Source: Verrucomicrobiales bacterium (GTDB taxonomy: Bacteria > Verrucomicrobiota > Verrucomicrobiia > Verrucomicrobiales > V1-33). Taken from it: 34,688 bases of DNA. The notes beneath the pieces are model-generated. The model did not search any database and was not told where the DNA came from. It worked only from the letters and a program-made list of their open reading frames with translations. The DNA lies in assembly GCA_018003315.1 (NCBI GenBank), contig JAGNEJ010000051.1, forward strand, positions 1 to 34,688. Direction: 5' to 3'. Within the stretch, counting starts at the first letter, position 1. The number at the start of each line of letters is the position of its first letter. Shown here piece after piece: positions 342 through 17,880 of the stretch. Position numbers and translations under genes: made by a program.

Positions 342-349
342 TTATGGTG
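335..349 (-). terminator. Small hairpin over the sspA stop codon, possible weak terminator
   Basis: CACCAT-CTT-ATGGTG forms a 6-bp stem with a 3-nt loop overlapping the TAA of sspA (342-344). There is no T-run after it on the minus strand, so it is not a standard intrinsic terminator. It is the only hairpin I see at the end of this long operon. Confidence 0.2.
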
Positions 350-1484
350 TATGAGTCAGAAGAGTTCGAACAAACTCAGCGAAACGAGAAATGTCCTCCT
401 TAGTATTTTCTTCGCTTAGAGAGATTCTCAGCGCTCCCATCGCTGATCCGTAATCCACCCCCATCGCCAGCGTCACATGGGAAGGCCTGTCGCTTCCGGA
501 CGAACAAGCAGATCCGGTGGAAGTGACAAAGCCAGCTTCCAGTAATTGGTGGATAAGCATTTCTGCTTCAATGTCGCGAAATAAAATGAGCGAGGTATTG
601 GGAAGTCTGGGTGCTCCTGCGCCAAGAATAGTTACCCCAAGGTCTGATAGCGAACTTTCCAACAAGTCACGAAGCTTTTCAAGATGGTTAGAATCCCTTG
701 TCGCGAGTGCCATTTCGGCTGCCTTGGCCAACCCTGCAGCGAGAGCTGGATTCTCAGTTCCGGCTCTCGCCGCACCTTGCTGGCCCCCTCCATGTAACAG
801 GGGGGGGAGCGAAACTCCGTTTCTGATAAAGAGCGCCCCAATTCCTTTGGGGCCGTGGAATTTGTGGGAGGACAGGGAGAGACAGTCCACCTCCTTGAGA
901 TCCGTTTGCAAGCTCATTTCAATTCGTGTCACAGCTTGGGTGGCGTCCGTATGAAAAACACACCCAGGACAGATTCGTCTGGCGATTGCCGCAGCATCAG
1001 CAACTGGCTGGATTACGCCAGTTTCATTGTTAGCAAGCATCACCGAAACCACTGCAGTGTCTGCGCGAAGCAGATCCTCAAAAGCGGAGATGTCGAGCAC
1101 TCCGTCAGTCGTAACCGGCGCATGATCCACTTTCACGCCAGGGAAGTTTTCGGCGAGGTAACCGACCACTTCCAGTACTGAGGGATGCTCGATGGCAGAG
1201 ACGACGATGTGACATTTGCCGGTTGCCTGAACTGCGTGCCAAGCTGCCGATTTGATAACCCAATTGTTCGATTCGGTGGCACCGGAAGTGAGTATGATTT
1301 CTTCGGGTGAGCAATTGATCAGTCGAGCAACCCGCTCCCTGGCCTCCCGCAATGCTCTTCCCGAATTCTGTAAAGCCCCGGCCGCAGAAGATGGGTTGAA
1401 ATAGTCGTCGCTGAAAAACGGCAACATTGCCTCCAATACCTGTGGAAGCACCCGAGTGGTAGCGTTGTTATCAAAGTAAACCAT
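342..1484 (-). CDS. sspA: Cysteine desulfurase SspA (IscS/DndA family)
   Basis: PLP-dependent enzyme that takes sulfur from L-cysteine and, by family knowledge, carries it as a persulfide to SspD for DNA backbone phosphorothioation. The 380 residues match the usual IscS/NifS/DndA length. The N-terminus YFDNNATT is typical. The PLP lysine sits in SSHKFHGPKG (Lys208), the cofactor-contact motif is HTDATQAV (near 178-185), and the catalytic cysteine is Cys327 in TGSACSSG. The ATG lies 18 nt after the sspH stop, without a clear Shine-Dalgarno. It is the last gene of a seven-gene minus-strand run. A housekeeping IscS is the alternative, but there are no iscU, iscR or tRNA-thiolation neighbours and it is co-directional with sspD. 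In described systems sspA is often apart from sspBCD; here it closes the operon. Confidence 0.87.
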   Translation of the reverse strand: MVYFDNNATTRVLPQVLEAMLPFFSDDYFNPSSAAGALQNSGRALREARERVARLINCSPEEIILTSGATESNNWVIKSAAWHAVQATGKCHIVVSAIEHPSVLEVVGYLAENFPGVKVDHAPVTTDGVLDISAFEDLLRADTAVVSVMLANNETGVIQPVADAAAIARRICPGCVFHTDATQAVTRIEMSLQTDLKEVDCLSLSSHKFHGPKGIGALFIRNGVSLPPLLHGGGQQGAARAGTENPALAAGLAKAAEMALATRDSNHLEKLRDLLESSLSDLGVTILGAGAPRLPNTSLILFRDIEAEMLIHQLLEAGFVTSTGSACSSGSDRPSHVTLAMGVDYGSAMGALRISLSEENTKEDISRFAEFVRTLLTHTP

Positions 1485-1502
1485 GGGGTGGAGTCACAGA
1501 TC

Positions 1503-4500
1503 TTATGCCTGAGGCGTCGTTGTTTCAGGCTCAGGAACTGGGGAGGAGTAGCGCTTGTTCAGCAAGGAAACGAGCGGCTCCATTTCCTCATCGGTGTCGA
1601 TATAGGGAACTTGGAGGTAGACTTTGACCGAATCGACCTTGGCGAGCATGTGCCCGTGTTTGAGAAGTTGCTCTGCCCTGCTGTTCTTCTCTCCAGTCGC
1701 AATTTCCGCCGTTCCTGGGTCGGAAACCTTGAGCACGAGCCGGTTGGCTAACTGTGAACGAAGTTGCAACGGCATAACGGTATTGTCCGGACGCTGGGCG
1801 CAAAACATCATGAAAATCCCAGCCGCCCGGGATTTCTGACTCAGCCGATTGACAAGGCTATCAACATTGGAGGCGTAGTCATCGTCCTCCATCCATTCGG
1901 CGAATTCGTCGTGAATGACCCAAAGCGTCGGCAAGTAGATGGCAGTCTTTGCCCGATAGTGGTTGATGTTCTTAGCCTCGGCTTCTTTGAAGAGCTGGTA
2001 ACGGCGTTCCATTTCTTCAACCAAGCCGCCAAGGACTTCTATTGAGCCTTCCTTGGTGTCGATGATCGAGCCGCCTCCAGCCTTCACGTGTGGAAGGTGC
2101 CGCAGAGGCATATAATCGATTCCACTTTTCCCGTCAATCAGGTAGATGTGGCTTTGATCAGGACTCCGCGTCAGGGCGATGTGGAGGAGCATGTTCTGGA
2201 TGAGGACCGATTTTCCTGAACCGGTAGCCCCAGCAATAAGCGTGTGAGGATTGGCGAAGGGATCGATGAACATGGGGTCTCCGTCCTCTTCTCGGATACC
2301 GATGAACACTCTTTCTCCATGGCTTACTTGGTCCTTCATGAGGTCAGCGAAAACGTTGACCGTATGGAGAACTTGCCGGTCTGGTCTCTCGACCGAAACT
2401 GAGATCATGCGTTCACCGGGAAACAGGCTGAGAATTTTCAAGCCGTCCGTGGTATAGAGTTCGTCAGCACGTTTTTCGATCTGACTGAGCGTCAGATCAG
2501 GGCCACCCTGAAGCCTGATGAGTGCGGCATTCGGTGTGAGAATGGGAGATTTGCCCTCTACGGGTTTGGCAGACATCCCGTGTCTATGCAGAGCTGACTT
2601 CAGATTGAAGACTGTCTTCATCAGCCATTCCTGGTCGTCTTTAGCGGAAGCCGTGTGCAAGGCGGCCCGGACTCCAAGGAAAGAAAGCACTGGATCCAAT
2701 TCTGTGCTTGGGATTATAGGGGGCTCTTCTGTTGGGGGCTCCTCTGGATTCCCGCTCATGGCGCAAGTCGATTTGTCTTCCAACTCTGGTTCTGGTGCGG
2801 ACTCTGGAGCGGATTGGGTGAAATCCTTCGCTTTCACCGTTTCCGGTGGAAAATGATGGCTGCGTTCCTGTGCCCGGGCTGCCTCTTCATCGGAGGTCAG
2901 GCGCAGGTCAATCGCTTTGAGCGGGGCGAATTTCGGATGTCCAAGCTGGTTGCGAAGAATGAGGGTTTTCGAGGGAGTCTTCTCCAGCATGTGAACGATG
3001 ATGTCCCTGGTAGCTTCGAAATTGAAGACTTCCTGATGGGCCTGAACGTCGTGAATTTTTGTGGCAATACCCTTGTGCTGGGAAACAACCTGCTCGCCCG
3101 GGAGGTGTGCGAAGACGTGCGAATAGCCGGTGATTGAGAAGGTGCATTGCCGGCTTCGGATCAAGGCTCGCCAGTATTCAGGGATCACGGCACCATTCCG
3201 AGAGGATCTGATGGTTCGTGACAACAGCATGTCCGCGAGTCGGGAAAGCCAAAGATCCTGGTCAAGTGGTCTGGGATCTGCGCTAAGAGCCCGGGCCATT
3301 TGCAGAAGAGTATCCAAGAGCTGTGATTCAGAATCCGACTTCTCAAGATTGACGATCTCCGGAGTGACGAATTTCGCCTCAGTCACGACGATCTCCAAGT
3401 GGGGCCTGCCGTCGCGTTCTCCAGGTGAGAGGACGAGCAGGTCTGCAAGCCTGCTTCCGTCGCGTTTGCCTAGCCAATGGCAATAATCGTCAAGCAGGAA
3501 CCAACAATCTTTGCCGTCCGTTCCGATCTGGGATTCGATCAGAAACTTTGAGAGGACCACGCCAATCAACTCCTTCGTATTGTTGGACCGCCGTGCGGCG
3601 CGGAGGATGAGCCTGCCTGAAATAGCATTGGCCTGATGCATGAATTGTTTCACGAATCCGTCGAGTTGCTCCTCTGGAGGATCGCCGATTAGGATGTTGC
3701 GAAGTATCTCTTTGATTGTTGCGACAAGAAGTGTGTCACGCGCAGTGGAGGAGATCACGGTGTTACGTCCAATAGACGTGTTTTGCACGTATCGGATGAC
3801 TCGAATGTCCTTGTCTTCGAGCAGCCTGCGGTCAAGCAGTTGGTCTTGATTGACGACCCATACGCCAAGGTCATGGGTCTCCCTGATAGTGCGAGAAACA
3901 TCCTCACTGTCGAAATTCAGAGATCGCACGGGCAATACCAGCCAGCCGGCTTCCCATCCCTTTTTCACCATCTGCGGCTCACAGGCAAAACCGAGGTTGT
4001 GAATATAGCTCCACCCACTGGCGGTTTGGGCCGGGCAAGTCAGGTAGATCTGGGCAACCCTGTTACCTTCTTTGAAAGGAAGCATGCGTTGCCATTGGTG
4101 CGGGATGAGGTCATCCGCGGGTACAATGCTTCCTTCCTTCCCTGTCCACTCCCAGGCAATTCTCGACTCTTTCGAAAGTAGGTCGCGACAGAATGCGATG
4201 TCGGTCGGTTTGCATCGTTTGGTGCGGCGGCTGGGACCGACTGAACCCACGGCTGAAATGTTAATACGCACTCGGGAGAGAAAATCGTTGTCGCGCTCGT
4301 CGGCTGTAGAATTCGGAGCATCCGCAACAAGTTCCTGATAGACACTCTGAAGCTGCCGTTCGTTCCGATTCGTGAGAAGGATCTCGCAGTTCACCTTGTC
4401 ACATTTGGGATCCCGGTTTCGCTTGTTAAATTCTTCGACAAGCATGGAGGGAAGTTCACTGGATCTGCAATTGTATAAAAGGATGGCGAGATTGTCCCGT

Positions 4501-7010
4501 TCGTGCGGCTGCAAACGGAGGTAATCATCCACCTCCTCTATGATCACCTGCGTCGCCTCCCTGGCGTCCTCTGCAGTGGCTTGGGCTTCGGCATGGATGT
4601 TTTTCCCATCCTCAGCCTGATGGATAGAATAGTTTCCGAAATGGGAACTGTGGGACATCAGTTTGGCGTCCAACTTGCTCCAAGCCAGCGTGAGGTCTGG
4701 AAGGAGCGGGGACTCGCAAAGCTCTTTGACGTCCTTGATGAAAAGACTTCCTTTTCGGTCGTCTGAAAACTGTAGCGCGACCGGTGTCAGGATCTCGGTC
4801 AGGCGGCGAGTGAGTTGAACCACCCGTGCACGGTGCGCTTCCATACGCAATGGATGCCATGGACAGATGATCGAGATCGTGGGCCGTCGGTTGGACTCTT
4901 CAATGGTAACCGAGCCAAAATGCCAGAACTCCTCAAGGAGTCGTTTCCGGAGGAAATCGTTTCCGATAGAAGCTATCTGTTGGTGTACCTCTCGGTAAGC
5001 AGTTGAGTATTCCGGAATGGGGGTAAGATTGAGAGCGCTGCTGCCATAGGCACTGAGCGCTGCTTTTGCGGCTTTCGACAGGTCTGCGAGCGCCAGCTTG
5101 ATGGTCTTCGCTGCTTCAGGAGGAAGCTTGTTGTCACTCTCAGCCTCTGCAAGGAGGGCAAGGATTTTGGCATCGATGGTTTCGATCTTCGAGGGGCTGG
5201 GGATGAAGCGGCCTGAAATATTGCCTCCGGGGCTTGGCGCGAACCCCTGTGTGTCCTCAAGCGAGATATTGTGTGGTACGCCGGTCTTTCCGACGGAAGC
5301 ATAGTTCGCCACGCTCTTAACAAGAGCTGTCCTGTTGGCCATCGAAGCGTGTTTGATAATGGCATCAAGGTCGGAGGATTCCTGGACGGGGACGGAATCT
5401 CCGGGGAATCGCCAGATCAGGGGAATGCTTGCGACAAGAGCCCAATCCTTCTGGTTTGGCGCCCGTTCGTGGATGGTGACGCGAAACTCGAGCGATCTTG
5501 CGGTCTTGGATTTCTTTTTGCCTCCACTGAATTTGAGCTCACTTTTTACCTTCGCTCTAAAGTCGGGGAGGAGCGTACGCTTTTTGCCGGTGCCCTCCCC
5601 GGCGAACGAGACCCGCCCACCCGTGAGTTCTTCCAGCTTTCCATAATGACGCTCGAAATACGTGCAGACATCAGCGTCGAATACTCTGAAATCTGCGATG
5701 GAACTTTGACGGACTCCCTCAATGACTACCTTGCATTGATTGCCGAGGGTGAATCCCTGGAGACGTCGGCGTACGCAATCGAAAAGTCCAGCAATGAAGT
5801 CCGTGCAAGTGGCACTTTTCTCGTAGACGTAGTCCTGCCATTCTGCGGCGAGCTTCGGATTGTGATCGGCAATGACATCCTCGAATGTTTCAAAGAAAAG
5901 CTTCTCATCCTCACTGGAAGATCCAGATTTGCGTGAGGTCTTGGATTCGAGTTCCTCCAGTAAAGCATTCTCCTCTTCAGAGGGTTGGAGGTTCCTGTGG
6001 CTGAGTGCCTTTCTGGTTTCTTCGACAAACTTCCGGATGGATGACTTCGGCGATGCCTTGTCGAAGAACTTCTTAGCGTCGCTCCAATCGTGTTCAAAAA
6101 AGAGGGTCTGGGCGGGCGCTTGATCTGAAGGTTCAGCATTCGCGTATTCGGCGAAAGCCTGCAGCAGTTCGTCAGAGACGGCTATTTCTCCGGAAGCGGC
6201 CTGATCGCGGTACTTATCGAGGGATTTAAGAAGTTCGTCGGGATCCAGAAGCAATCCCGAAGGCTGACGCCGTGCGAGATAGCTGGCATTCTTTTGATGT
6301 TGCTCAAATTTCTCCGCCCATTGACTTTTATATCCTAGTTTCTTGTCGACGAGAGCTTTAAAGCAGTCTTCGTATTTTGGAAGGCCTAGCTTGGGCAGGT
6401 TGAGTCCGGCGGCTTTTGTAATATGAGTGCCGTCATTGACCGTGCTGACGACGCTGAGGATATAGTCAGCGGCGGCCTCGATCCCGAAGTAGCCAACGTC
6501 AAAGACGCCGCGAATCAGGGCGATGATGTGCTTTCGGGTTGTTTCGCTGATGGTCGCTCCCAACTCCGCGCAAACAACTTCGTACCAGTCCTCGGCAGTC
6601 TCGTCGCTGGCTTTAAGTGCGTCGGCAGAGATCGTATCCTTGTGATTGAGAGATGTCCCAACGTCGCCTTCCGAATCGACCGTGAGGATGATCCGCCCGG
6701 TGCGTTCCAGCGAGCGGGTGTGGACTGCAGAGTGATCGACGAGGTAGCTGTCCGCGACCACACCCTGAAAAGTGCCCCGTGGAAGTTCGATGTGGAGCTT
6801 CGCGGCTATGCTGGACACGCCTGAACTTGCCAGGACGAATTCCGCGATCTGATCCGGGGTGAAGCCTGAGAGAATCCAGAAGCAGCCCGGAAACGGATCA
6901 TCCTCAAGAATCGAGACCAGTTTCTTCAGCAGGGTGCGCATCGCAACCTTGCTGATGATTCGAACTTTGGGATCAGTGGCGGGCATAACAGAAGGTAGGG
7001 ATAGGATCAT
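1503..7010 (-). CDS. sspH: SspH/DptH-like restriction protein: putative PD-(D/E)XK nuclease plus FtsK/HerA-type translocase
   Basis: Very large protein (1835 aa), the size class of DptH/DndH, the motor component of phosphorothioation-dependent restriction. Residues 1 to about 1150 are not recognised. Near 1187-1215 the strand pattern RLADLLVLSP followed by IVVTEAKF gives D1190, E1211 and K1213, matching a PD-(D/E)XK nuclease core. A Pro/Glu-rich linker spans about 1397-1440. From about 1440 to the end lies an FtsK/SpoIIIE-like module: an alpha/beta lead-in around 1490-1560, Walker A GATGSGKS at 1594-1601, Walker B in LWVIHDEFAEW near 1703-1713, and an arginine-containing CAQRP motif near 1737. 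The ATG overlaps the sspG stop (ATGA), so translation is probably coupled. It likely uses ATP to move on DNA and cut phage DNA lacking PT marks. Assignment to SspH rather than DndH rests on the adjacent sspBCD genes. Confidence 0.82.
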   Translation of the reverse strand: MILSLPSVMPATDPKVRIISKVAMRTLLKKLVSILEDDPFPGCFWILSGFTPDQIAEFVLASSGVSSIAAKLHIELPRGTFQGVVADSYLVDHSAVHTRSLERTGRIILTVDSEGDVGTSLNHKDTISADALKASDETAEDWYEVVCAELGATISETTRKHIIALIRGVFDVGYFGIEAAADYILSVVSTVNDGTHITKAAGLNLPKLGLPKYEDCFKALVDKKLGYKSQWAEKFEQHQKNASYLARRQPSGLLLDPDELLKSLDKYRDQAASGEIAVSDELLQAFAEYANAEPSDQAPAQTLFFEHDWSDAKKFFDKASPKSSIRKFVEETRKALSHRNLQPSEEENALLEELESKTSRKSGSSSEDEKLFFETFEDVIADHNPKLAAEWQDYVYEKSATCTDFIAGLFDCVRRRLQGFTLGNQCKVVIEGVRQSSIADFRVFDADVCTYFERHYGKLEELTGGRVSFAGEGTGKKRTLLPDFRAKVKSELKFSGGKKKSKTARSLEFRVTIHERAPNQKDWALVASIPLIWRFPGDSVPVQESSDLDAIIKHASMANRTALVKSVANYASVGKTGVPHNISLEDTQGFAPSPGGNISGRFIPSPSKIETIDAKILALLAEAESDNKLPPEAAKTIKLALADLSKAAKAALSAYGSSALNLTPIPEYSTAYREVHQQIASIGNDFLRKRLLEEFWHFGSVTIEESNRRPTISIICPWHPLRMEAHRARVVQLTRRLTEILTPVALQFSDDRKGSLFIKDVKELCESPLLPDLTLAWSKLDAKLMSHSSHFGNYSIHQAEDGKNIHAEAQATAEDAREATQVIIEEVDDYLRLQPHERDNLAILLYNCRSSELPSMLVEEFNKRNRDPKCDKVNCEILLTNRNERQLQSVYQELVADAPNSTADERDNDFLSRVRINISAVGSVGPSRRTKRCKPTDIAFCRDLLSKESRIAWEWTGKEGSIVPADDLIPHQWQRMLPFKEGNRVAQIYLTCPAQTASGWSYIHNLGFACEPQMVKKGWEAGWLVLPVRSLNFDSEDVSRTIRETHDLGVWVVNQDQLLDRRLLEDKDIRVIRYVQNTSIGRNTVISSTARDTLLVATIKEILRNILIGDPPEEQLDGFVKQFMHQANAISGRLILRAARRSNNTKELIGVVLSKFLIESQIGTDGKDCWFLLDDYCHWLGKRDGSRLADLLVLSPGERDGRPHLEIVVTEAKFVTPEIVNLEKSDSESQLLDTLLQMARALSADPRPLDQDLWLSRLADMLLSRTIRSSRNGAVIPEYWRALIRSRQCTFSITGYSHVFAHLPGEQVVSQHKGIATKIHDVQAHQEVFNFEATRDIIVHMLEKTPSKTLILRNQLGHPKFAPLKAIDLRLTSDEEAARAQERSHHFPPETVKAKDFTQSAPESAPEPELEDKSTCAMSGNPEEPPTEEPPIIPSTELDPVLSFLGVRAALHTASAKDDQEWLMKTVFNLKSALHRHGMSAKPVEGKSPILTPNAALIRLQGGPDLTLSQIEKRADELYTTDGLKILSLFPGERMISVSVERPDRQVLHTVNVFADLMKDQVSHGERVFIGIREEDGDPMFIDPFANPHTLIAGATGSGKSVLIQNMLLHIALTRSPDQSHIYLIDGKSGIDYMPLRHLPHVKAGGGSIIDTKEGSIEVLGGLVEEMERRYQLFKEAEAKNINHYRAKTAIYLPTLWVIHDEFAEWMEDDDYASNVDSLVNRLSQKSRAAGIFMMFCAQRPDNTVMPLQLRSQLANRLVLKVSDPGTAEIATGEKNSRAEQLLKHGHMLAKVDSVKVYLQVPYIDTDEEMEPLVSLLNKRYSSPVPEPETTTPQA

Positions 7011-8635
7011 GCTTGACCAGGATGTCCCGCTTGCTGACTTGACGATTGCCGTGGCCGCCCAAGTGGGTTAAGAACGTAGGTGCAAGCATCGCTCATTGTA
7101 TTGCCCAAACCCAAACCGACCAGACGGCGCGACAGTCTGCCCTGGTTCAGTTTGTAATCCGCTTCGTCGTAGTGCTGGGGATTGTGTTTACCAATGGTGA
7201 TCGCGGCTTCACGGGCACCGAAGACAATGCCGTACTTTTTGAGAAGGAGTTCAAGGAAGTCTGCCTCTTCGACAGGAACATCGTCCACGATGTTGGCGAA
7301 GACCAGAGCGCGGAGAAGACTATCGGTAGGAGCATAGCGCTTTTTTACTGTCCCGCGCGAATCGATCAGGCCCGCTTCCCGGCCGAGAGATTCGAGGGCA
7401 GGCATCGTCCCCAATCGATACGCCTTCTCTGCTTCTCGGCGAATTCCGGAGAGAACTTCATCCCGCGTGTCGAACTTTCTCAACGTCTCCATGTGGTCAT
7501 CATTGAGAGCGAACAATCTGGACATTTCATTTGCAAGCTCACCGGCCCTGTCTTTTTCGCTCAGATCGGGTTGAAAGTCTTCGGATAGGATCAGTGCAAC
7601 CTCTTTATCTGCCCCTATGCGCCGGTTCACGTAGCTCCGCATGGCATCCTGCCCCATAGCTTCGTTCTCGTCCTTGTTGCCGATGGATGCGCGTCGGACG
7701 ACATCCATTCGCGGGCCGGGTATCTCACAGATCAGGAAAGGCATCTCAGAAGTGGACTTGCTCCAAGCCGCCGAGGTTTCCACTCCGTAGATGTAGAGAT
7801 GCAGCGGAATAATGAACCGGATGTGTTCGAGTGCGTCCTGATGCGGCAGGCCGAGACGAAGAATGGCGATCAGGTCTTCCGCAAGGCGGTTGAATGCCGG
7901 GTGCTCTTGGTAGGGAAGATAGGTTGCCCCTTTCTTGGAGCCCCTGTCCTTCTTTCCTGGTGGCATTAGGCTGAGGACAAGCCTGTTTCTAGAAGTGTTA
8001 GTGTCCAGAAATTCTTCAAGCAGCCGACGCAGTTCGTCCCGGTGTTGTCTGCTGGCCCTGCTAACCATCAGATAGGTGATTTCACCTGTGCGGGTGAAGG
8101 TGTTGCGATCCCGGATGAAATTCAGTTCGTTTGGTTCGTAGAGTGCGGCGGGACCGATGGGAAATAAAAGTCGGTAGGTATATTTGTTAGTTTTCCCAGT
8201 ATCCAGCACAAGCTTGCGTACGAGCTCAACCCGTTCAACGAGATCGGAAAAAGAGGAGATCGAATTTCGGAGGTACCCGAAGTTGATCGGCTCGTCACCG
8301 ACACGGGCGGCTATATCCTTGAGCCAGTTTTCCCACATGGCATCCTCATTATCCTGATGGTCATTGCGGATCTGCACCATCCGCGGGTTGTTGAAGATCA
8401 AAATACGTAGTTCCTTTGAAACCGGTGCTGTATAAGCGACCTCAACATCAGGCTGTGTCTCGGTCAGAAGACTCGCTCCTTCGATCAGTCCCTCCACCAT
8501 TCCGAGAAATTCCAAGGTCGTTGCCCACCCCCTTTGGGCCTGTAATCGATGTCCCCAAACTGCCTCGTTAAACCAGCCTGCGAAGTTGCTTTTGGAGCCC
8601 TTGTATTCCACAAGGTTGTCGATGATTGTAGGCAT
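7007..8635 (-). CDS. sspG: SspG/DptG-like restriction component
   Basis: A 542-aa soluble protein with no signal peptide, membrane segment, Walker motif or nuclease motif that I can see. It opens with MPTIIDNLVEYKG and contains a helical stretch around 370-450. I identify it by place: it lies between an SspF/DptF-type ATPase (15-nt gap upstream) and the SspH/DptH-type motor (ATGA overlap downstream), the fixed order of these three-gene modules. DptG proteins are of similar size and are needed with DptF and DptH for restriction, but their biochemical role is poorly defined. Sequence alone does not give me the family; an HMM comparison with DptG/SspG would settle it. Confidence 0.68.
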   Translation of the reverse strand: MPTIIDNLVEYKGSKSNFAGWFNEAVWGHRLQAQRGWATTLEFLGMVEGLIEGASLLTETQPDVEVAYTAPVSKELRILIFNNPRMVQIRNDHQDNEDAMWENWLKDIAARVGDEPINFGYLRNSISSFSDLVERVELVRKLVLDTGKTNKYTYRLLFPIGPAALYEPNELNFIRDRNTFTRTGEITYLMVSRASRQHRDELRRLLEEFLDTNTSRNRLVLSLMPPGKKDRGSKKGATYLPYQEHPAFNRLAEDLIAILRLGLPHQDALEHIRFIIPLHLYIYGVETSAAWSKSTSEMPFLICEIPGPRMDVVRRASIGNKDENEAMGQDAMRSYVNRRIGADKEVALILSEDFQPDLSEKDRAGELANEMSRLFALNDDHMETLRKFDTRDEVLSGIRREAEKAYRLGTMPALESLGREAGLIDSRGTVKKRYAPTDSLLRALVFANIVDDVPVEEADFLELLLKKYGIVFGAREAAITIGKHNPQHYDEADYKLNQGRLSRRLVGLGLGNTMSDACTYVLNPLGRPRQSSSQQAGHPGQA

Positions 8636-8650
8636 GTGAGATCGGGAGAT

Positions 8651-10480
8651 TTAGTGCTCTAATTGGATGTGGGTCTTCAGTACCCGACCCGCTTCCCCGA
8701 TCATCAGACGGAAGAGTTCATTGGGACGAGCGCGGACATTCAGATCGCGGAGGGCTTTTTGCTTCAGGGACATCAGATCCTCGCGTGCTTCACGGGAAAA
8801 ACTACCAGGCATCGCACCTTCTGCCGCTCTCTGGATGAATTCGAAGCGCATCAGGGTGATGATCATTTCGAATCGGCGGTTGCCGAGAGTGATGACAAGC
8901 TTCGGAAGTTGTGCAGGCGACGGCTCCAGCTTGATCGAGCTTTTGGAAAGCAGTTCGAGAAGAATGTCGCTAACCGGAGAGGTGGTCATGTCGAGCCCGG
9001 ACGCGAGAACCAGCTCCTGCTCAGTTGAGGCGATATACATGCCTGTCCATATACGGTTTAACCCCGTGATGATAGGATTGAGCTTCACGTTCGGGATAGC
9101 CCGGCCACCGCGCAACGGCACTAGGTAATCGTGGATATAGGTGCCGGCATGATGAAAAGCCGCAATGCGCCAGAGATTGTTGTCTCGCATGCATGTGTCG
9201 TCAGCATGGAAGAATACGCGGCGGCGTTCGTCGGCAAGGTTATCGAGGAACTCATTCAGATCCGTCGAGTCATTGATCTCTCCCCGGATGTAGCGAGAGA
9301 TCCGGTCCTGGAGCCTCCTGCATCGCTGGTGATGAGGATCATGGGCGACGATGGCCGCGTACAAAGCTTTGACTTCGGGTTGATCCCGGTCTCCAAAAAT
9401 AAGCAATTCGTCGATGTCGTTGGTGGTTTCGCTTCCGATCTCGAGAGACGCCAGGAAACGATAGACGTTGTGCTTTCTACGACGGATTGGCCCGAGGTTG
9501 TAGCCGAACAAATTCCGATGAAACGCACCTTCGGCCCGACCTTCGGAGGAGGATTTTAGAAGTTGGCGGGTGGCGGTGTTCGGTTTTAGCAATCCTTCTG
9601 GGGCACCTGGATGCCCCAGAAGGGCATTGGACAGGAGCATGAGAATTGAGCGGATCGGCAGGTGAAATTGGCAAGCATCAGCCAGTCTGGCAATGTCGAA
9701 CAAGCGGTTCTGTGTCGCCTCTGAAGACAGGATTTGAAAATTGGCAGTCAACGGAGACTCCGGTGCAAAAAGTGGGTCCGTCGACTCGTCCTCCAGACAC
9801 TTCCATTCTGGCCGAGAAATGACTGCCGTAATGCAGGCCCGCATGAGAACCTCTGACGTAATCATGGAGAGGTCCACGAGTCTGAAATTGGCCAGGGCTG
9901 GTGATTGGCTGATACCTTTGGCGTGGAGTTGAATCGCCTCTTCAAAAAACTCCCGCAAATCGTGTGAGATGACGTTGGGTAAAGCACGGAAGACCTCATG
10001 GATCTGTCCGTCATTCACGGCGATGATGGTGGGATAGTGGCTGCCAGACTTGGCGTGTGATGCGATTCTTTCGAGAATGTCCACCTGTTCAGGGATGAGC
10101 CTGTTGTTGGAATCGCGCTTTCGCCACCCAGTGAGATCACGGATGAGATCAAGATTACCGCCGCCCGGCAGGGAAAAGGTTTCAATTCCCTCTTTCGACG
10201 CTGGGGCAGGTGCGGTTCCCGTCAGATCCTTGATGATATCGTAGCAGAGTGTCGTTTTGCCATCACCTGCGGTTCCCGTGATGAGGATGGTAGGGCGGGA
10301 TTGCTGGGAGGCATTCAGAAACCACTGGTCCAGTTGTTCGCGGGCGGGGTGCGTAAATACCAAGCGGTCAATCCCGAGAGGCTTCGTGTGAGAATCGACG
10401 TTTTCCGCTTCAGTTGCATTGTTGCCGGGAACGGGACCGTATCCGCGAAGCAGTTTGATCCAGTTTTCGCCTTTGCTCAT
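8651..10480 (-). CDS. sspF: SspF/DptF-like P-loop ATPase
   Basis: A 609-aa protein with a clear Walker A, GTAGDGKT (69-76), and a Walker B-like strand with the DptF-type ending, TIIAVNDGQ (151-159). Residues 160-609 are mostly helical and unrecognised. DptF is the ATP-binding partner in DptFGH restriction modules; SspF is its counterpart in SspABCD-SspFGH systems, where the FGH proteins damage DNA lacking phosphorothioate and block phage replication. The ATG lies 28 nt after the sspD stop with no good Shine-Dalgarno, and the gene ends 15 nt before sspG. The same-strand order F-G-H supports the call. Confidence 0.8.
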   Translation of the reverse strand: MSKGENWIKLLRGYGPVPGNNATEAENVDSHTKPLGIDRLVFTHPAREQLDQWFLNASQQSRPTILITGTAGDGKTTLCYDIIKDLTGTAPAPASKEGIETFSLPGGGNLDLIRDLTGWRKRDSNNRLIPEQVDILERIASHAKSGSHYPTIIAVNDGQIHEVFRALPNVISHDLREFFEEAIQLHAKGISQSPALANFRLVDLSMITSEVLMRACITAVISRPEWKCLEDESTDPLFAPESPLTANFQILSSEATQNRLFDIARLADACQFHLPIRSILMLLSNALLGHPGAPEGLLKPNTATRQLLKSSSEGRAEGAFHRNLFGYNLGPIRRRKHNVYRFLASLEIGSETTNDIDELLIFGDRDQPEVKALYAAIVAHDPHHQRCRRLQDRISRYIRGEINDSTDLNEFLDNLADERRRVFFHADDTCMRDNNLWRIAAFHHAGTYIHDYLVPLRGGRAIPNVKLNPIITGLNRIWTGMYIASTEQELVLASGLDMTTSPVSDILLELLSKSSIKLEPSPAQLPKLVITLGNRRFEMIITLMRFEFIQRAAEGAMPGSFSREAREDLMSLKQKALRDLNVRARPNELFRLMIGEAGRVLKTHIQLEH

Positions 10481-10508
10481 GAGAGGACAAGAAATTGAAG
10501 GTGGGCTA

Positions 10509-11345
10509 TTAAAGGTGGCAGATCAGGCATCCGGCGGATGGCGCTTCCTGCGTCCTGAGACCGGCCAGCGTGGTGACGAGCGGAAGGTTTTTCCGGCTCT
10601 GGGCATTCCGCGCCTGCTGAACCTCCCATTTTTCGAGGATCTCCGCCATCCGTTCAGGACGTTCAAGCTCGGTAAGAGGCTCGTCCTGACACCAATAAAA
10701 GACATTCCCGTTGATGCGGTTGGGTTTCTCGTAGGCCTTCGCGGCCTCGAAGAGCTCGGGATACTGCATCTTCAACCGGACCCATTCGACCTTCTGCTGA
10801 TAGAAACAGAAAAAACACCCCGAGCGGGTGCGCCCCCATTCCGTGTAGGGTGGCATGCCAATGCCTGATTCTTCAAGGATCCGCTGGACGCCTTCGTAAT
10901 CGATTCCGTCTTCGCGGAACGGGAAGACCGCCTGGATATTTGGTTTGTGGCTGACGTATCCAATGCGTGCCTCGTCGGCCCGGATGCCCACGTAGTTGAT
11001 ACAAACGTCCTCGCCAATATAGTCCTCAAACGGCTTTAGCTTCATCATCCGCGTGCACCAGCGCCGGTGGTTGGATGGGAGCATGCCCCCATAACGCCGT
11101 AGGAGATCATCGAACGTGGTGCCAAAAGTCGTCTTGACTATCCGCTTGCCGAGGTAGTCCTCAAGACGGTTCAAGTAGTCGTAAGTATCAGGCAACTCTT
11201 TGTCGGTGTCGTGGAAGATGTATTCCATGTTCTCGACACGGTCGCGCATGTAGATCGCCAGTGCTGCCGAATCCTTGCCGCCGGAAAGGCTGAGGATGTG
11301 GCGGATTGGCTTCCCTTCGGGATTGAATGGCGGCTTAGTCGTCAT
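10509..11345 (-). CDS. sspD: SspD, PAPS-reductase/ATP-pyrophosphatase-like sulfur-insertion enzyme (DndC-like)
   Basis: A 278-aa member of the PAPS-reductase/adenine nucleotide alpha-hydrolase family. The PP-loop SGGKDSA is at 21-27 and the adjoining FHDTDKELPDTYDYL (45-59) is the classical following strand and helix. Cysteines in RRWCTRMMK (C97) and SGCFFC (C177, C180), with further C-terminal cysteines (CLIC), resemble the Fe-S ligands of DndC. The enzyme would use ATP to activate the DNA backbone and transfer sulfur delivered by SspA. I choose the ATG at 11345, whose ATGA overlaps the sspC stop; a longer reading from 11471 adds a low-complexity Arg-rich extension unlike the family. It sits between sspC and sspF, as in known sspBCD-sspFGH cassettes. 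Confidence 0.88.
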   Translation of the reverse strand: MTTKPPFNPEGKPIRHILSLSGGKDSAALAIYMRDRVENMEYIFHDTDKELPDTYDYLNRLEDYLGKRIVKTTFGTTFDDLLRRYGGMLPSNHRRWCTRMMKLKPFEDYIGEDVCINYVGIRADEARIGYVSHKPNIQAVFPFREDGIDYEGVQRILEESGIGMPPYTEWGRTRSGCFFCFYQQKVEWVRLKMQYPELFEAAKAYEKPNRINGNVFYWCQDEPLTELERPERMAEILEKWEVQQARNAQSRKNLPLVTTLAGLRTQEAPSAGCLICHL

Positions 11346-14300
11346 TGGTCTTTGAGGTGCGCCCACAGGGCCTTTGCGGTCGCGCCAAGTCCGGCGCGGC
11401 CATGTTTGCGGATCAAGGCGGTGATTTGTTGTTCTATCTCGGAAACCTTGGCCTCTTCGGCTTCGCTCCAATGGAAAAGCTGCCCGTGCTCGTGACCGTC
11501 AGGTTTGGTGAGCATAACACGGACAACCCGGTCGCCAGAGCCTTCCATCTGAGTCCTTGTGACATCGCCTTGTGCGGCTTCAGCCCTTAGCATCCGTTGG
11601 GTGAATGCGACGAGCCTTTGGTTGAATACCTCCTCATCCGGGTCGCCCCACCGGATCGCTGACTTCTTGCTGAGATGGTTGGCCATCGATTCAAGCCATT
11701 GCCGGAGGTCCAGTCCATCGTCTCCAATGCGAAGGACGAAAGACTTGAGGTCGCTTTCCACCAAATGTTTTGCCGTGGCTTTGGATCGTGCGGAAAGTTC
11801 TTTGCGGAAGTCTCCAATTTTTGTTTTGGTGCCAAACGCTTCGGTGATCGAGGCGGAAAGGCGGCTAAGCAGCGCATCGTAGCTGCTGCTGAGTTCACCG
11901 ACCAAGTGCGCAACCTTGGTCCCTAAAGGCACCTTGTCGCCTTCTCCCTGTAGCGCTTCAGGGAGATCGCGGAAGATCAACTGGACGGGGTCCCGGGCCG
12001 CCAGGAGGATAGTCCGGATACGGACGGCTTCTTTGCTGAGGTTCTTCGTGGAACGACTGTATTCAGGCAAACGTGCAACAAACTCCATCAGCGGGCGGAC
12101 TACGTCGAGAACCTCGGGATCGGAACTCCTCTCGACATTAAAGACCTTGGCGATGGCATCAAAGGTATCCATTCGGTCCCCTTCGATAGCGCAATGCTGT
12201 AGTTGGAAAGCCTCGGGCTCCTTCGTCAGTCGTTGCGCAGTATCACCATCAAGATTGGGAGTGTAGGTCGAGTCTTCAAAGATGGCAGTCTGGCTTCGCC
12301 GTCCAGCGATGTAAAGGGCAAGGATCAGGGGGATGAGTCCGTCTCGGGCACCGATAGGTTCGTCCCGCAAGGCATCGATGATGGAGGAAACTTTGACCCG
12401 CTGGGCATCGTGTTTTTTCAGGATCTTCTCGATCTTCTCAAAAGCAGGGAGCAATCTACAGTGATCATCTGCCTTTGACGGGAAAACGAATTTCCAAATG
12501 CCGTCATCCCCTTCGATGTGGAGATTCCCGGCTCTGAGGACAGAAAGATAGATCGCCATTTCCGGCGGATTCTTCGACTCGTCCATGCCCAGATACTCGA
12601 CGCCAGGCTTCATTGCGATGGCGTCAATGAGAGCAGTTCGCGCACGGGAAGCGGCAGAACTGGTGACTCGGCGGTTGATCAGCTCGTTGGTAATTTTCGG
12701 ACACCGCTTGTAAATCTCCTCGCAGATCTGCGACAGTTTGCTGCTCAGACCATCCGGCTCGAGTTCGTCCGGTTGCCCTTTGCGGAACCACGAGACGAGA
12801 CGCGGGTTATGATTCCATCCGAGAAGCAGGTCGATCTGATAATCGAGACGTTCCTTGGCAATGCGGATTTGGCCCCGGAGTTCGCGCCGGGCGAATTCGT
12901 CGGACGAAAGTTCCTTCAGATTGGTTTGGACGAACTGCCAGGCTTGAAGGTCTTTCGAGATCCCAAGCAGGTCGAGTGGCGGACGTGAAAGCCCTACAAG
13001 CACAGAATCACCTGGATAAACAGTCCCGCTTTTCAGGATATTGAGCATCTGACGATGTTCGCGTTCATTTTCAGGAAGGAAGATGACGACGAATCCGTCC
13101 GCATTCCCATGACTCCCCTTGGGCCCAGCCAAGCAAAAGTGTTCGTAATCTTTGGCAGGAAGAAATTGCAGCTCGAAATGACGGAGGTTGCCGGTTTCGA
13201 TATAATGGCGTCGGGCGACGATTTGGCGACCTTCCAATTTGGAAGCAACCAAGCGCATGGGCTCGGTATGTTCTCCAATTTCCTTCTTCGCGTCGGCGAA
13301 TGCATCATCAAGGTGAACACTGCTGTGCGGCCACAAAGCAAAACCGCGGACAGCACTCCGCTCGAAGAGAAGTTTCTTCTCCTTCAACCTGTCAATCAGC
13401 CTGGATAGGAATGCCTGTTCGCTAGGAGTCTGTGCACCCATCGCCCGGATGAGCATCTGACGTGTCGCAAGCATATCATCGTCATCCAGCAGATTGAGAA
13501 TGCCGATGGACTTCAGACAATTCACTTCTTCCGGATCTTCGACCTTTCTCACGACAGACTCGATGATCCGCCAATGAGTTGCCCTGCCATTTGTCATCGT
13601 GTGCGCTATGTTTTGGCGCACGTAGTTGTATAGATCGGCGAGGCGGAAAAACCTCGCTTTCTCGACCTCCAAGCCGGCGACTTCCTGTAAAGCGGCTGGT
13701 TCGTGACCGGATAGGAAGCTAAACAGGGAACGTTCGTTCTGACTGAACCTGCGAAGGAGGTTCATAAGCGGAGGCAAGGCTACCGGGTGAAGCGGGAAAA
13801 TTTTGGGAGCCACTTCCCTAAGCGTTTGGGCAGGGGCGCTTCCATAAAGACCATCCTCTACAGCCCATTCCATGGTGCGGGAAGCTTCTTCAATGAACTT
13901 TGGAGGCAACCGATCCGTTTCCAGCCCGATAGCCTCCGCGCAAAGCTGAACTGTCTGCTCGAACGGATGTTGAAAAAGTAATTCGTCGAAACGCCCAGCG
14001 ACCTTGTCCCATTCTCTGCGCGTGGTGGAGTCCAAATCGTTGGTATAAGCGCCAATGCCCATGTGGAGGATCGCTATGACGACAAATGGTTTGTCGCTGG
14101 AACGCGAGGACATTTCGGCCAGCCGTTGAAGGACGTAAACATCAGTACTGGCGGGCTCCATTACCGCATGCTCCAAGTTTTTCCCAAGCTCATCCAACAC
14201 AAGGAATATCCCACGGGCACTGTCCTTGTGGGCCTTCTCCAAAAGAGCTATCAACTGTGGGGTATTGGACGGAACATGGCGTTTCGAATAGCCGGGGATC

Positions 14301-14710
14301 TGATTGATCACTGCCTTGCCGATGCTCTCGTGAAGAGGTTCGCGGTCGCCTGTTACAAAAACAGGATGGAGGCCTGTGCTTATTTTGCCCCTCAAAGCGA
14401 CGGGGATTTCACTTTGTTTGCCACAAGCAGCTTTTGCCAAAGCTAGCACAAATGCGGATTTGCCACTGCCATAGTCACCCGTGAGGCGCCATGCACGCTG
14501 GGTGCTTCCCTTGGCGAATGCGGGAAGTATCCAGTTGAAGGTTTGGACAACGAACTCCGTAGCAACGTAGCCAGAAGTCGAATTGCGATCATTGAAGTCC
14601 AGTTCGATCTGGACGGATTTTCTGAAACGCGGGTTGATATGCATCAAGTCGGAGACCCTGATGTTGGCGATGCCGTTGCTGGCCGAAGTTGTCTTGGATT
14701 TGGCGGGCAT
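11342..14710 (-). CDS. sspC: SspC-like large P-loop ATPase
   Basis: A 1122-aa ATPase. Walker A is GDYGSGKS (78-85), preceded by the RAWRLTG strand; Walker B is FLVLDELGKN (169-178). The rest is long, helical and without motifs I know. In the SspABCD pathway SspC is the ATPase that works with the nickase SspB and the sulfur transferase SspD in single-strand phosphorothioation. The ATG at 14710 is preferred; a GTG at 14719 overlaps the sspB stop as GTGA and would add three residues. The 3' end overlaps sspD by ATGA. PglY-type BREX ATPases have a similar size and an LDELGK motif, but no pglX, pglZ or brx genes are present, and the DUF4007 and PAPS-reductase neighbours favour SspC. Confidence 0.83.
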   Translation of the reverse strand: MPAKSKTTSASNGIANIRVSDLMHINPRFRKSVQIELDFNDRNSTSGYVATEFVVQTFNWILPAFAKGSTQRAWRLTGDYGSGKSAFVLALAKAACGKQSEIPVALRGKISTGLHPVFVTGDREPLHESIGKAVINQIPGYSKRHVPSNTPQLIALLEKAHKDSARGIFLVLDELGKNLEHAVMEPASTDVYVLQRLAEMSSRSSDKPFVVIAILHMGIGAYTNDLDSTTRREWDKVAGRFDELLFQHPFEQTVQLCAEAIGLETDRLPPKFIEEASRTMEWAVEDGLYGSAPAQTLREVAPKIFPLHPVALPPLMNLLRRFSQNERSLFSFLSGHEPAALQEVAGLEVEKARFFRLADLYNYVRQNIAHTMTNGRATHWRIIESVVRKVEDPEEVNCLKSIGILNLLDDDDMLATRQMLIRAMGAQTPSEQAFLSRLIDRLKEKKLLFERSAVRGFALWPHSSVHLDDAFADAKKEIGEHTEPMRLVASKLEGRQIVARRHYIETGNLRHFELQFLPAKDYEHFCLAGPKGSHGNADGFVVIFLPENEREHRQMLNILKSGTVYPGDSVLVGLSRPPLDLLGISKDLQAWQFVQTNLKELSSDEFARRELRGQIRIAKERLDYQIDLLLGWNHNPRLVSWFRKGQPDELEPDGLSSKLSQICEEIYKRCPKITNELINRRVTSSAASRARTALIDAIAMKPGVEYLGMDESKNPPEMAIYLSVLRAGNLHIEGDDGIWKFVFPSKADDHCRLLPAFEKIEKILKKHDAQRVKVSSIIDALRDEPIGARDGLIPLILALYIAGRRSQTAIFEDSTYTPNLDGDTAQRLTKEPEAFQLQHCAIEGDRMDTFDAIAKVFNVERSSDPEVLDVVRPLMEFVARLPEYSRSTKNLSKEAVRIRTILLAARDPVQLIFRDLPEALQGEGDKVPLGTKVAHLVGELSSSYDALLSRLSASITEAFGTKTKIGDFRKELSARSKATAKHLVESDLKSFVLRIGDDGLDLRQWLESMANHLSKKSAIRWGDPDEEVFNQRLVAFTQRMLRAEAAQGDVTRTQMEGSGDRVVRVMLTKPDGHEHGQLFHWSEAEEAKVSEIEQQITALIRKHGRAGLGATAKALWAHLKDQ

Positions 14711-14715
14711 CGGTG

Positions 14716-15653
14716 TCACGCGGCGTAGTAAATGGAACTGAGAAGCACGTCGTTGTCTGGACGAAGATTGCGGCTGATGCCGCGCTGACTCCGGGACTCC
14801 GTAAGTTCAAACTCCTTTGGATATTCCCGTGTCAGGTCGACGAGGATCTTGTGGATGGCGGATTCCGGCAAACGAAAGCATCGACCAGGGCTGTCTTCTC
14901 TGTGGGCGATCTGCCTCACCATGAGAGATTTTTCGTCAGCCTGGTTTTGATCCCACCATTCGTGAAGGCAATACCGGAACGTTTTGAAGGAAAGTGAAGG
15001 TTTGCTGCCAGTGGCAAACCGATAGACGGTTTCCCGCTTTCCATTGGGGAGTTTGCGATCTCCGTTTTCTCGGAGCAGACCGATCGTAGTCAGTGGACTG
15101 TCCAGCGTTTCTTCTGGAGTGCTTCGTGGCCCTGCGGGTTGTCCCTGAACGTAGGTGCGGACAAAAACTTCGAAATGCTGCCGCAAAGTAACGGCGGAAA
15201 GGTCCTTTCCTGACGCCACGGGACCACCCGCAAAATCGTCTATTGCCTCGGTGCCGTGATTTCATCGTTAGCCAAGATGTTCATGAAGAAGTGCCACGCA
15301 TAGGGACGCCGACGCTTCTGGCCCTCCAGCCAACCGTGACAGAGGTTCCAATGAAGGAGCCAAAGTGTCTGGGTGTTTTCTAAATAGGGATCAAACCCGG
15401 CTCGCCTTCGACCAAGCACTTTTTGCGCGAACCCGGTCAATCTGAGGCCTTCATCCGTCCTGTCAGCCAAGCCCGTAGCAACGACCCAAAAATAAAGTGA
15501 CTGGATCATGTTTTTACCGAGGCCAAGGGTCGTCATCCCGAACCGAGGGTCCGAAAACGGGTCGTCACCTTTCTCCAAAGCAGCCACGGCCTTCGGTAAC
15601 CAGCTGATTCTCAGGCTAAAGCTCTCATGGCCACTGTATGTAAAGTCGTGCAT
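14716..15653 (-). pseudogene. sspB: SspB-like DUF4007 DNA nickase, split by a -1 frameshift
   Basis: The two halves of one DUF4007 protein lie in different frames. The N-terminal half starts at the ATG at 15653 (MHDFTYSGHESFSLR, then LGKNMIQSLYFW, the family's most conserved blocks) and stops at a TAG at 15240-15242. The C-terminal half, in the -1 frame, is open from a TGA at 15262-15264 and runs through residues EAIDDF to the stop at 14716. The slip must therefore fall between 15240 and 15262; joined, the product is about 312 aa, normal for DUF4007. An AAGG lies 9 nt before the ATG. SspB nicks DNA for PT insertion, so a real mutation would disable modification; recoding or an assembly error are alternatives. 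A GTG at 15219 could start a 167-aa fragment. Confidence 0.8.
15240..15262 (-). other. Frameshift interval inside sspB
   Basis: On the minus strand the upstream frame stops at TAG (15240-15242), and the frame that carries the rest of DUF4007 has its own TGA just upstream (15262-15264). A one-base deletion, a one-base sequencing loss or a -1 ribosomal slip in between restores a continuous protein. There is no A6/T6 run or classical heptameric slip site in the interval (the longest run is AAA), which disfavours programmed slippage. Confidence 0.75.

Positions 15654-15906: not shown

Positions 15907-17876
<1,970 letters not shown>

Positions 17877-17880
<4 letters not shown>

What the first reader, a model, noticed from the sequence alone, without database searches (positions are those of the whole stretch)
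342..15653. Complete sspBCD-sspFGH phosphorothioation defence cassette with its own sspA in one operon
The order B-C-D-F-G-H-A on one strand, with three stop/start overlaps (B/C, C/D, G/H) and short gaps, joins the PT-writing and PT-sensing modules with a linked desulfurase. Known: SspABCD writes single-strand PT marks and SspFGH damages unmarked DNA. Seen here: all motifs except for SspG. Unusual: sspA lies at the 3' end after sspH, making the island self-sufficient in sulfur supply. The combination with a serine recombinase makes it a transferable unit.
Basis: partly seen in the sequence, partly recalled or inferred. Interest (0 to 1): 0.7.

Follow-up and report, generated by a model that had tools for sequence, protein, structure and literature searches.

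The report
Phage-defence cassette with broken marking gene
This is a known kind of bacterial anti-phage island that tags its own DNA with sulfur and attacks untagged DNA, in an ordinary gene order, but one tagging gene (sspB) is interrupted by a one-letter frameshift in this assembly, and the island seems to sit at a transfer-RNA gene beside an unusual tRNA-targeting recombinase.

Summary
Profiles confirm a SspBCD-SspFGH phosphorothioation cassette with linked sspA on the minus strand (342-15653). SspC, SspF, SspG and SspH match Ssp models far better than any other family, and the claimed gene overlaps are real.

(1) The cassette is not complete as written: sspB is split by a single-base frameshift near 15249-15257. 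sspB is one open frame in all 52 relatives where both halves were found and in the nearest relative in the order; the genome holds no second copy. (2) sspA after sspH is not unusual: it is the commonest placement seen (24 of 62 relatives) and the rule in this clade (12 of 12 assessable, plus the nearest locus).

Whether the frameshift is a real mutation or an assembly error cannot be settled without reads. If real, SspFGH would be left without its protecting mark.

The 'transferable unit' idea gains support. The serine recombinase ORF runs into a tRNA-Ser, with an attL-like inverted repeat centred on the tRNA 3' end. The element-side arm occurs beside 11 of 11 recombinase-linked tRNAs and 0 of 39 others. 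That tRNA-targeting serine recombinase family is the most novel part.

The parts
342..1484 (-). sspA, cysteine desulfurase (380 aa), catalytic-type Cys in GSACSSGS
   Evidence: PADLOC SspA 3.7e-114, DndA 4.7e-112; Aminotran_5; Cys327; PDB SspA 6m4j match
1503..7010 (-). sspH (1835 aa) with C-terminal FtsK/HerA-like translocase, Walker A GATGSGKS
   Evidence: PADLOC SspH 1423 bits; FtsK_SpoIIIE; motif
7007..8635 (-). sspG (542 aa)
   Evidence: PADLOC SspG 7.1e-121; 4-bp overlap with sspH
8651..10480 (-). sspF (609 aa), P-loop GTAGDGKT
   Evidence: PADLOC SspF 1.9e-172; motif
10509..11345 (-). sspD (278 aa), PP-loop SGGKD, CxxC pairs
   Evidence: PADLOC SspD 5.6e-111; PAPS_reduct; motif
11342..14719 (-). 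sspC (1125 aa, GTG start), P-loop GDYGSGKS
   Evidence: PADLOC SspC 1121 bits against BrxC 376
15240..15653 (-). sspB, N-terminal part in the starting frame, stops at TAG 15240-15242
   Evidence: PADLOC SspB profile 1-123; DUF4007; translation
14716..15261 (-). sspB, C-terminal part in the -1 frame (first possible start GTG at 15219)
   Evidence: PADLOC SspB profile 138-282; DUF4007; translation
15249..15257 (-). place of the single-base frameshift in sspB
   Evidence: alignment with intact homologs; sequence
15907..17880 (+). large serine recombinase ORF (657 aa as open frame; about the last 90 codons are antisense tRNA and DNA beyond it)
   Evidence: Resolvase, Recombinase and Zn_ribbon_recom domains; translation; homologs in the phylum
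17604..17693 (-). tRNA-Ser (TGA), inferred integration target, at the step from low to high GC
   Evidence: ARAGORN; composition
17584..17627 (+). attL-like inverted repeat: AGTTCG 17584-17589, TGG (encoded CCA end) 17604-17606, CGAAC 17623-17627
   Evidence: sequence; same element-side arm in 11 of 11 recombinase-linked tRNAs, 0 of 39 other tRNAs

Best explanation
A horizontally acquired single-strand phosphorothioation restriction-modification cassette of the known SspABCD-SspFGH type, on an element that a large serine recombinase probably placed at a tRNA-Ser gene of a Verrucomicrobiota genome. By homology, SspA takes sulfur from cysteine, SspD (PP-loop) activates it, SspB (DNA-binding nickase) and SspC (ATPase) install it in one DNA strand, and SspF/G/H damage DNA that lacks the mark. 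In this assembly sspB carries a single-base frameshift that separates its first ~130 residues from the remaining ~180, so as written the marking module is broken while the attacking module is intact. Shown here: family membership of each gene, the frameshift, intactness in relatives, gene order, and the tRNA/recombinase junction. Inferred: the biochemical steps, the mobility, and that the frameshift disables marking.
For: Near full-length PADLOC matches for all seven proteins with expected P-loop, PP-loop and Cys motifs; same gene order in the close clade and in L153; sspB halves in two frames, one ORF in 52 of 52 relatives with both halves found and in L153, no other copy in the genome; GC step at the tRNA; SspG in only 2 of 289 genomes of the order; literature on SspABCD-SspFGH (PMC8092258).
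Against: No biochemical evidence in this organism. SspFGH without PT impaired growth of E. coli JM109 (PMC8092258), so loss of sspB beside intact sspFGH would be unexpected if stable, and hints that the frameshift could be an error. The other end of the island is not on the contig.
Confidence: 0.85

Rival explanations
1. The frameshift is a real mutation (fixed, or a strain variant in the sampled population): marking is lost, and SspFGH is silent, tolerated or restrained in some other way.
For: The genome is not broadly frameshifted: 53 full-length ABC domains and 19 full-length sulfatase domains show none. The site has no long homopolymer. All other cassette genes are open.
Against: SspFGH alone is harmful in E. 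coli (PMC8092258), so intact sspFGH without sspB should be selected against. Both sspB halves keep nearly all conserved positions, so the event would have to be recent.
Confidence: 0.55
2. The frameshift is a sequencing or assembly error, and the real cassette is complete.
For: Draft multi-contig assembly; 24 of 25 and 10 of 12 conserved positions are kept in the two halves; everything else in the operon is intact; an unmarked genome with SspFGH should be unfit (PMC8092258).
Against: No frameshift in about 40 kb of sampled ABC and sulfatase domains; no error-prone homopolymer at the site.
Confidence: 0.37
3. sspB works as two polypeptides or through recoding (frameshifting or re-initiation at GTG 15219).
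For: Both halves are open and conserved; a GTG lies at 15219 in the downstream frame.
Against: No relative has the split. No slippery heptamer in the frame overlap (by eye). The cut falls at the start of a helix inside a compact predicted fold.
Confidence: 0.08
4. The cassette is a BREX, MADS or Dnd system rather than Ssp.
For: SspC resembles BrxC/PglY (376 bits); SspH and SspG weakly match mad8 and MAD7.
Against: Every gene scores much higher against Ssp models, and no methylase, PglZ, DndB, DndD or DndE match appears in the cassette.
Confidence: 0.01

Closest known systems
SspABCD-SspFGH of Vibrio anguillarum FF-93 (PMC8092258)
   Same: sspBCD next to a three-gene sspFGH with P-loop SspF and FtsK-like SspH C-terminus; linked or unlinked cysteine desulfurase
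   Different: Here sspA follows sspH in the same operon and sspB is frameshifted; the FF-93 work used iscS as desulfurase
Verrucomicrobiota and other loci of the same clade (L040, L043, L044 = IMCC26134, L045, L047, L095, L153)
   Same: B-C-D-F-G-H-A in the same order
   Different: sspB intact; no homolog of this serine recombinase found at those loci
SspABCD-SspE (PMC9646914)
   Same: Same marking module
   Different: No SspE; attacking module is SspFGH
DndABCDE-DndFGH
   Same: Phosphorothioation with a three-gene attacking module
   Different: No DndB, DndD or DndE match; SspB and SspC in their place; F/G/H score as SspF/G/H
Large serine integrases of phages such as Bxb1 (PMC9262239)
   Same: Resolvase plus Recombinase domains; inverted arms around a short core
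   Different: Target inferred here is the 3' end of tRNA genes, which that review says mycobacteriophage serine integrases do not use

Membership tests
SspABCD-SspFGH defence system | sspB, sspC and sspD together (marking module) | tested here: inconclusive
   sspC and sspD intact; sspB present but frameshifted in this assembly
SspABCD-SspFGH defence system | sspF, sspG and sspH together (attacking module) | tested here: met
   PADLOC SspF 573, SspG 403, SspH 1423 bits, near full length
SspABCD-SspFGH defence system | cysteine desulfurase, linked or elsewhere | tested here: met
   sspA at 342-1484; others in the genome
SspABCD-SspFGH defence system | single-strand PT marks and PT-dependent protection from SspFGH | not testable with these tools
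   needs LC-MS/MS and phage assays
SspABCD-SspE | SspE (GmrSD_N-type domain) | tested here: not met
   no PF03235 match in the genome
BREX | BrxC/PglY as best match of the large ATPase, with PglZ and a methylase | tested here: not met
   SspC 1121 bits against BrxC 376; no PglZ or methylase match in the cassette
DndABCDE-DndFGH | DndB, DndD and DndE in the marking module | tested here: not met
   no match in the cassette; DndC only at 18 bits to SspD
Large serine integrase element | recombinase beside an att site at the element edge | tested here: met
   domains; tRNA junction and shared motif in 11 of 11
Large serine integrase element | second att site and empty site | tested here: inconclusive
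   contig ends at position 1; no second tRNA-end copy apart from two other tRNA-like sites; no syntenic empty site among relatives

The most novel reading that the evidence does not exclude
The cassette rides on an element of a large-serine-recombinase family in Verrucomicrobiota that targets the 3' ends of different tRNA genes (Ser, Pro, Asn). It would recognise a pseudo-palindromic site made of an element arm (RGTTCG at -20) and the tRNA T-arm (CGAAC at +20 to +24), with the crossover at the encoded CCA end. In the nearest members the recombinase ORF runs through that site, so its C-terminal end could change on integration.
Probability: 0.6. Interest if true: 0.5.

Novelty: new member of a known kind. 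Interest (0 to 1): 0.33.

Why it matters
As a defence cassette it adds a member to a described system and shows that sspA at the 3' end is normal. The frameshifted sspB beside intact sspFGH would be a natural test of whether SspFGH is harmful without its mark, if reads confirm it. The tRNA-targeting serine recombinases may matter more widely: a review says that mycobacteriophage serine integrases do not use tRNA genes (PMC9262239), and recombinases with a site built on the conserved tRNA T-arm could be useful insertion tools across hosts.

Tried and rejected
Rejected: 'complete cassette' (frameshift); 'sspA position unusual' (survey); BREX, Dnd and SspE readings (profile scores); programmed frameshifting (not conserved, no slippery site). 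Led nowhere: SspF has no match in phage records or viral contigs, the recombinase none in viral contigs by exact peptide patterns, and an exact sspB stretch no match in viral contigs, so no independent copy of the frameshift site was found. No syntenic empty tRNA site in relatives. Promoter and terminator scans did not stand out from shuffles. A repeat search for a second att gave only chance-like repeats. The SspF tree has a long window branch, so its exact place is unsure.

Full report
What is there. The window is contig 124 of a 5.09-Mb, 155-contig draft assembly (96.5% complete). On the minus strand from 15653 to 342 lie sspB, sspC, sspD, sspF, sspG, sspH and sspA. PADLOC models match SspC (1121 bits), SspD (369), SspF (573), SspG (403), SspH (1423) and SspA (380) over nearly their whole lengths.

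The break in sspB. DUF4007/SspB is found in two frames. The frame that starts at ATG 15653 matches profile positions 1-123 and ends at TAG 15240. A frame shifted by -1 matches from position 138 and is open back to about position 124. Alignment with homologs places a single-base frameshift at about 15249-15257. All 52 relatives in which both halves were found have them in one ORF; 7 more have one long ORF without a detected C-terminal hit; and the nearest cassette in the same order, L153, is intact. The genome has no other DUF4007. Both halves keep almost all highly conserved positions (24 of 25 and 10 of 12), so any loss is recent. The predicted fold of an intact relative (L040, pLDDT 91.5) is compact, and the cut falls at the start of a helix about 43% along. 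The solved SspB structures 6juf/6lb9 match the family profile.

Real or error? Reads are not available. The genome is not broadly frameshifted: 53 full-length ABC domains and 19 full-length sulfatase domains show none. The site has no homopolymer beyond two or three bases and no slippery heptamer in the overlap of the frames (by eye). I put a real mutation or strain variant at 0.55, an error at 0.37 and a working split or recoded SspB at 0.08. PMC8092258 reports that SspB nicking is essential for PT and that SspFGH alone impaired E. coli JM109 until sspBCD was supplied. A stable loss of sspB with intact sspFGH would therefore be unexpected, which keeps the error hypothesis alive.

sspA position. 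In 80 loci fetched with SspF, the 3' end of sspH and the DNA beyond it are visible in 62. sspA follows sspH on the same strand in 24, precedes sspB in 11, lies beyond sspH on the opposite strand in 1, and is not seen in 26. In the window's SspF clade all 12 assessable relatives have it after sspH, as does L153. The arrangement is the clade's norm. The genome has other class-V aminotransferase-family genes; the one at C101 is 41% identical to SspA. PMC8092258 already notes that sspA may be adjacent or elsewhere and can be replaced by IscS.

Horizontal origin. The cassette is 52-56% GC, and the DNA right of 18000 is mostly 61-69%. SspG occurs in 2 of 289 genomes of the order and in no other searched member of the genus or family. 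SspF has relatives on 34 plasmid records, 17 of them predicted conjugative. No SspE-type domain occurs in the genome.

The vehicle. A large serine recombinase (15907-17880) diverges from sspB. Its ORF runs antisense into tRNA-Ser (17604-17693), at the GC step. Its best homologs in the phylum lie next to tRNA-Ser, tRNA-Pro or tRNA-Asn genes. At all 11 such tRNAs, the window's included, [AG]GTTCG starts exactly 20 nt before the tRNA 3' end, mirrored by CGAAC at +20 to +24 in the T-arm. In 39 other tRNAs of the fetched loci (two further hits are copies of the window's own tRNA) it never does. CGAAC at that place is a general tRNA feature; the element-side arm is the informative part. Where it overlaps the recombinase the motif is read in two different frames, and in L128-L132 it lies outside the gene, so it looks conserved as DNA rather than as protein. 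I read this as attL of a serine integrase with its crossover at the encoded CCA end. None of the 80 Ssp loci matched this recombinase, so the link with Ssp is particular to this genome. The other end is off the contig, and no empty site was found.

Mechanism. From the literature: SspA and SspD mobilise sulfur, SspB and SspC install it in one strand, and SspFGH damages DNA without it (PMC8092258, PMC7188994, PMC10853773). What is shown here is sequence membership and anatomy only.

Verdict. A new member of a known system, in a common gene order, with a frameshifted marking gene in this assembly. The recombinase family is the part worth following.

Noticed in passing
window 17584-17627; L123-L132, L152: RGTTCG exactly 20 nt before the tRNA 3' end and CGAAC at +20 to +24 form an attL-like inverted repeat at all 11 tRNAs (Ser, Pro, Asn) beside this family of large serine recombinases, and the RGTTCG arm is absent at 39 other tRNAs.
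   Followed up: partly
window 15907-17880; L124-L127, L152: In the nearest homologs the recombinase ORF overlaps the antisense tRNA 3' end, so its last codons are supplied by the tRNA and the DNA beyond it; the C-terminus could change between integrated and excised states.
   Followed up: partly
L102, L153, L040: The marking and attacking modules differ in divergence: L102 has SspD 77% but SspF 31% identical to the window; L153 has SspC 62% and SspD 83% but SspF/G/H 38-42%, suggesting module exchange or faster change of FGH.
   Followed up: no
L096, L101, L106, L107, L111, L112, L118: In these loci sspD (and sspC where seen) lies on the opposite strand to sspFGH, a different cassette layout.
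   Followed up: no
L047, L073, L083: A gap of about 0.8-0.9 kb separates sspH and sspA, room for an extra gene that was not examined.
   Followed up: no
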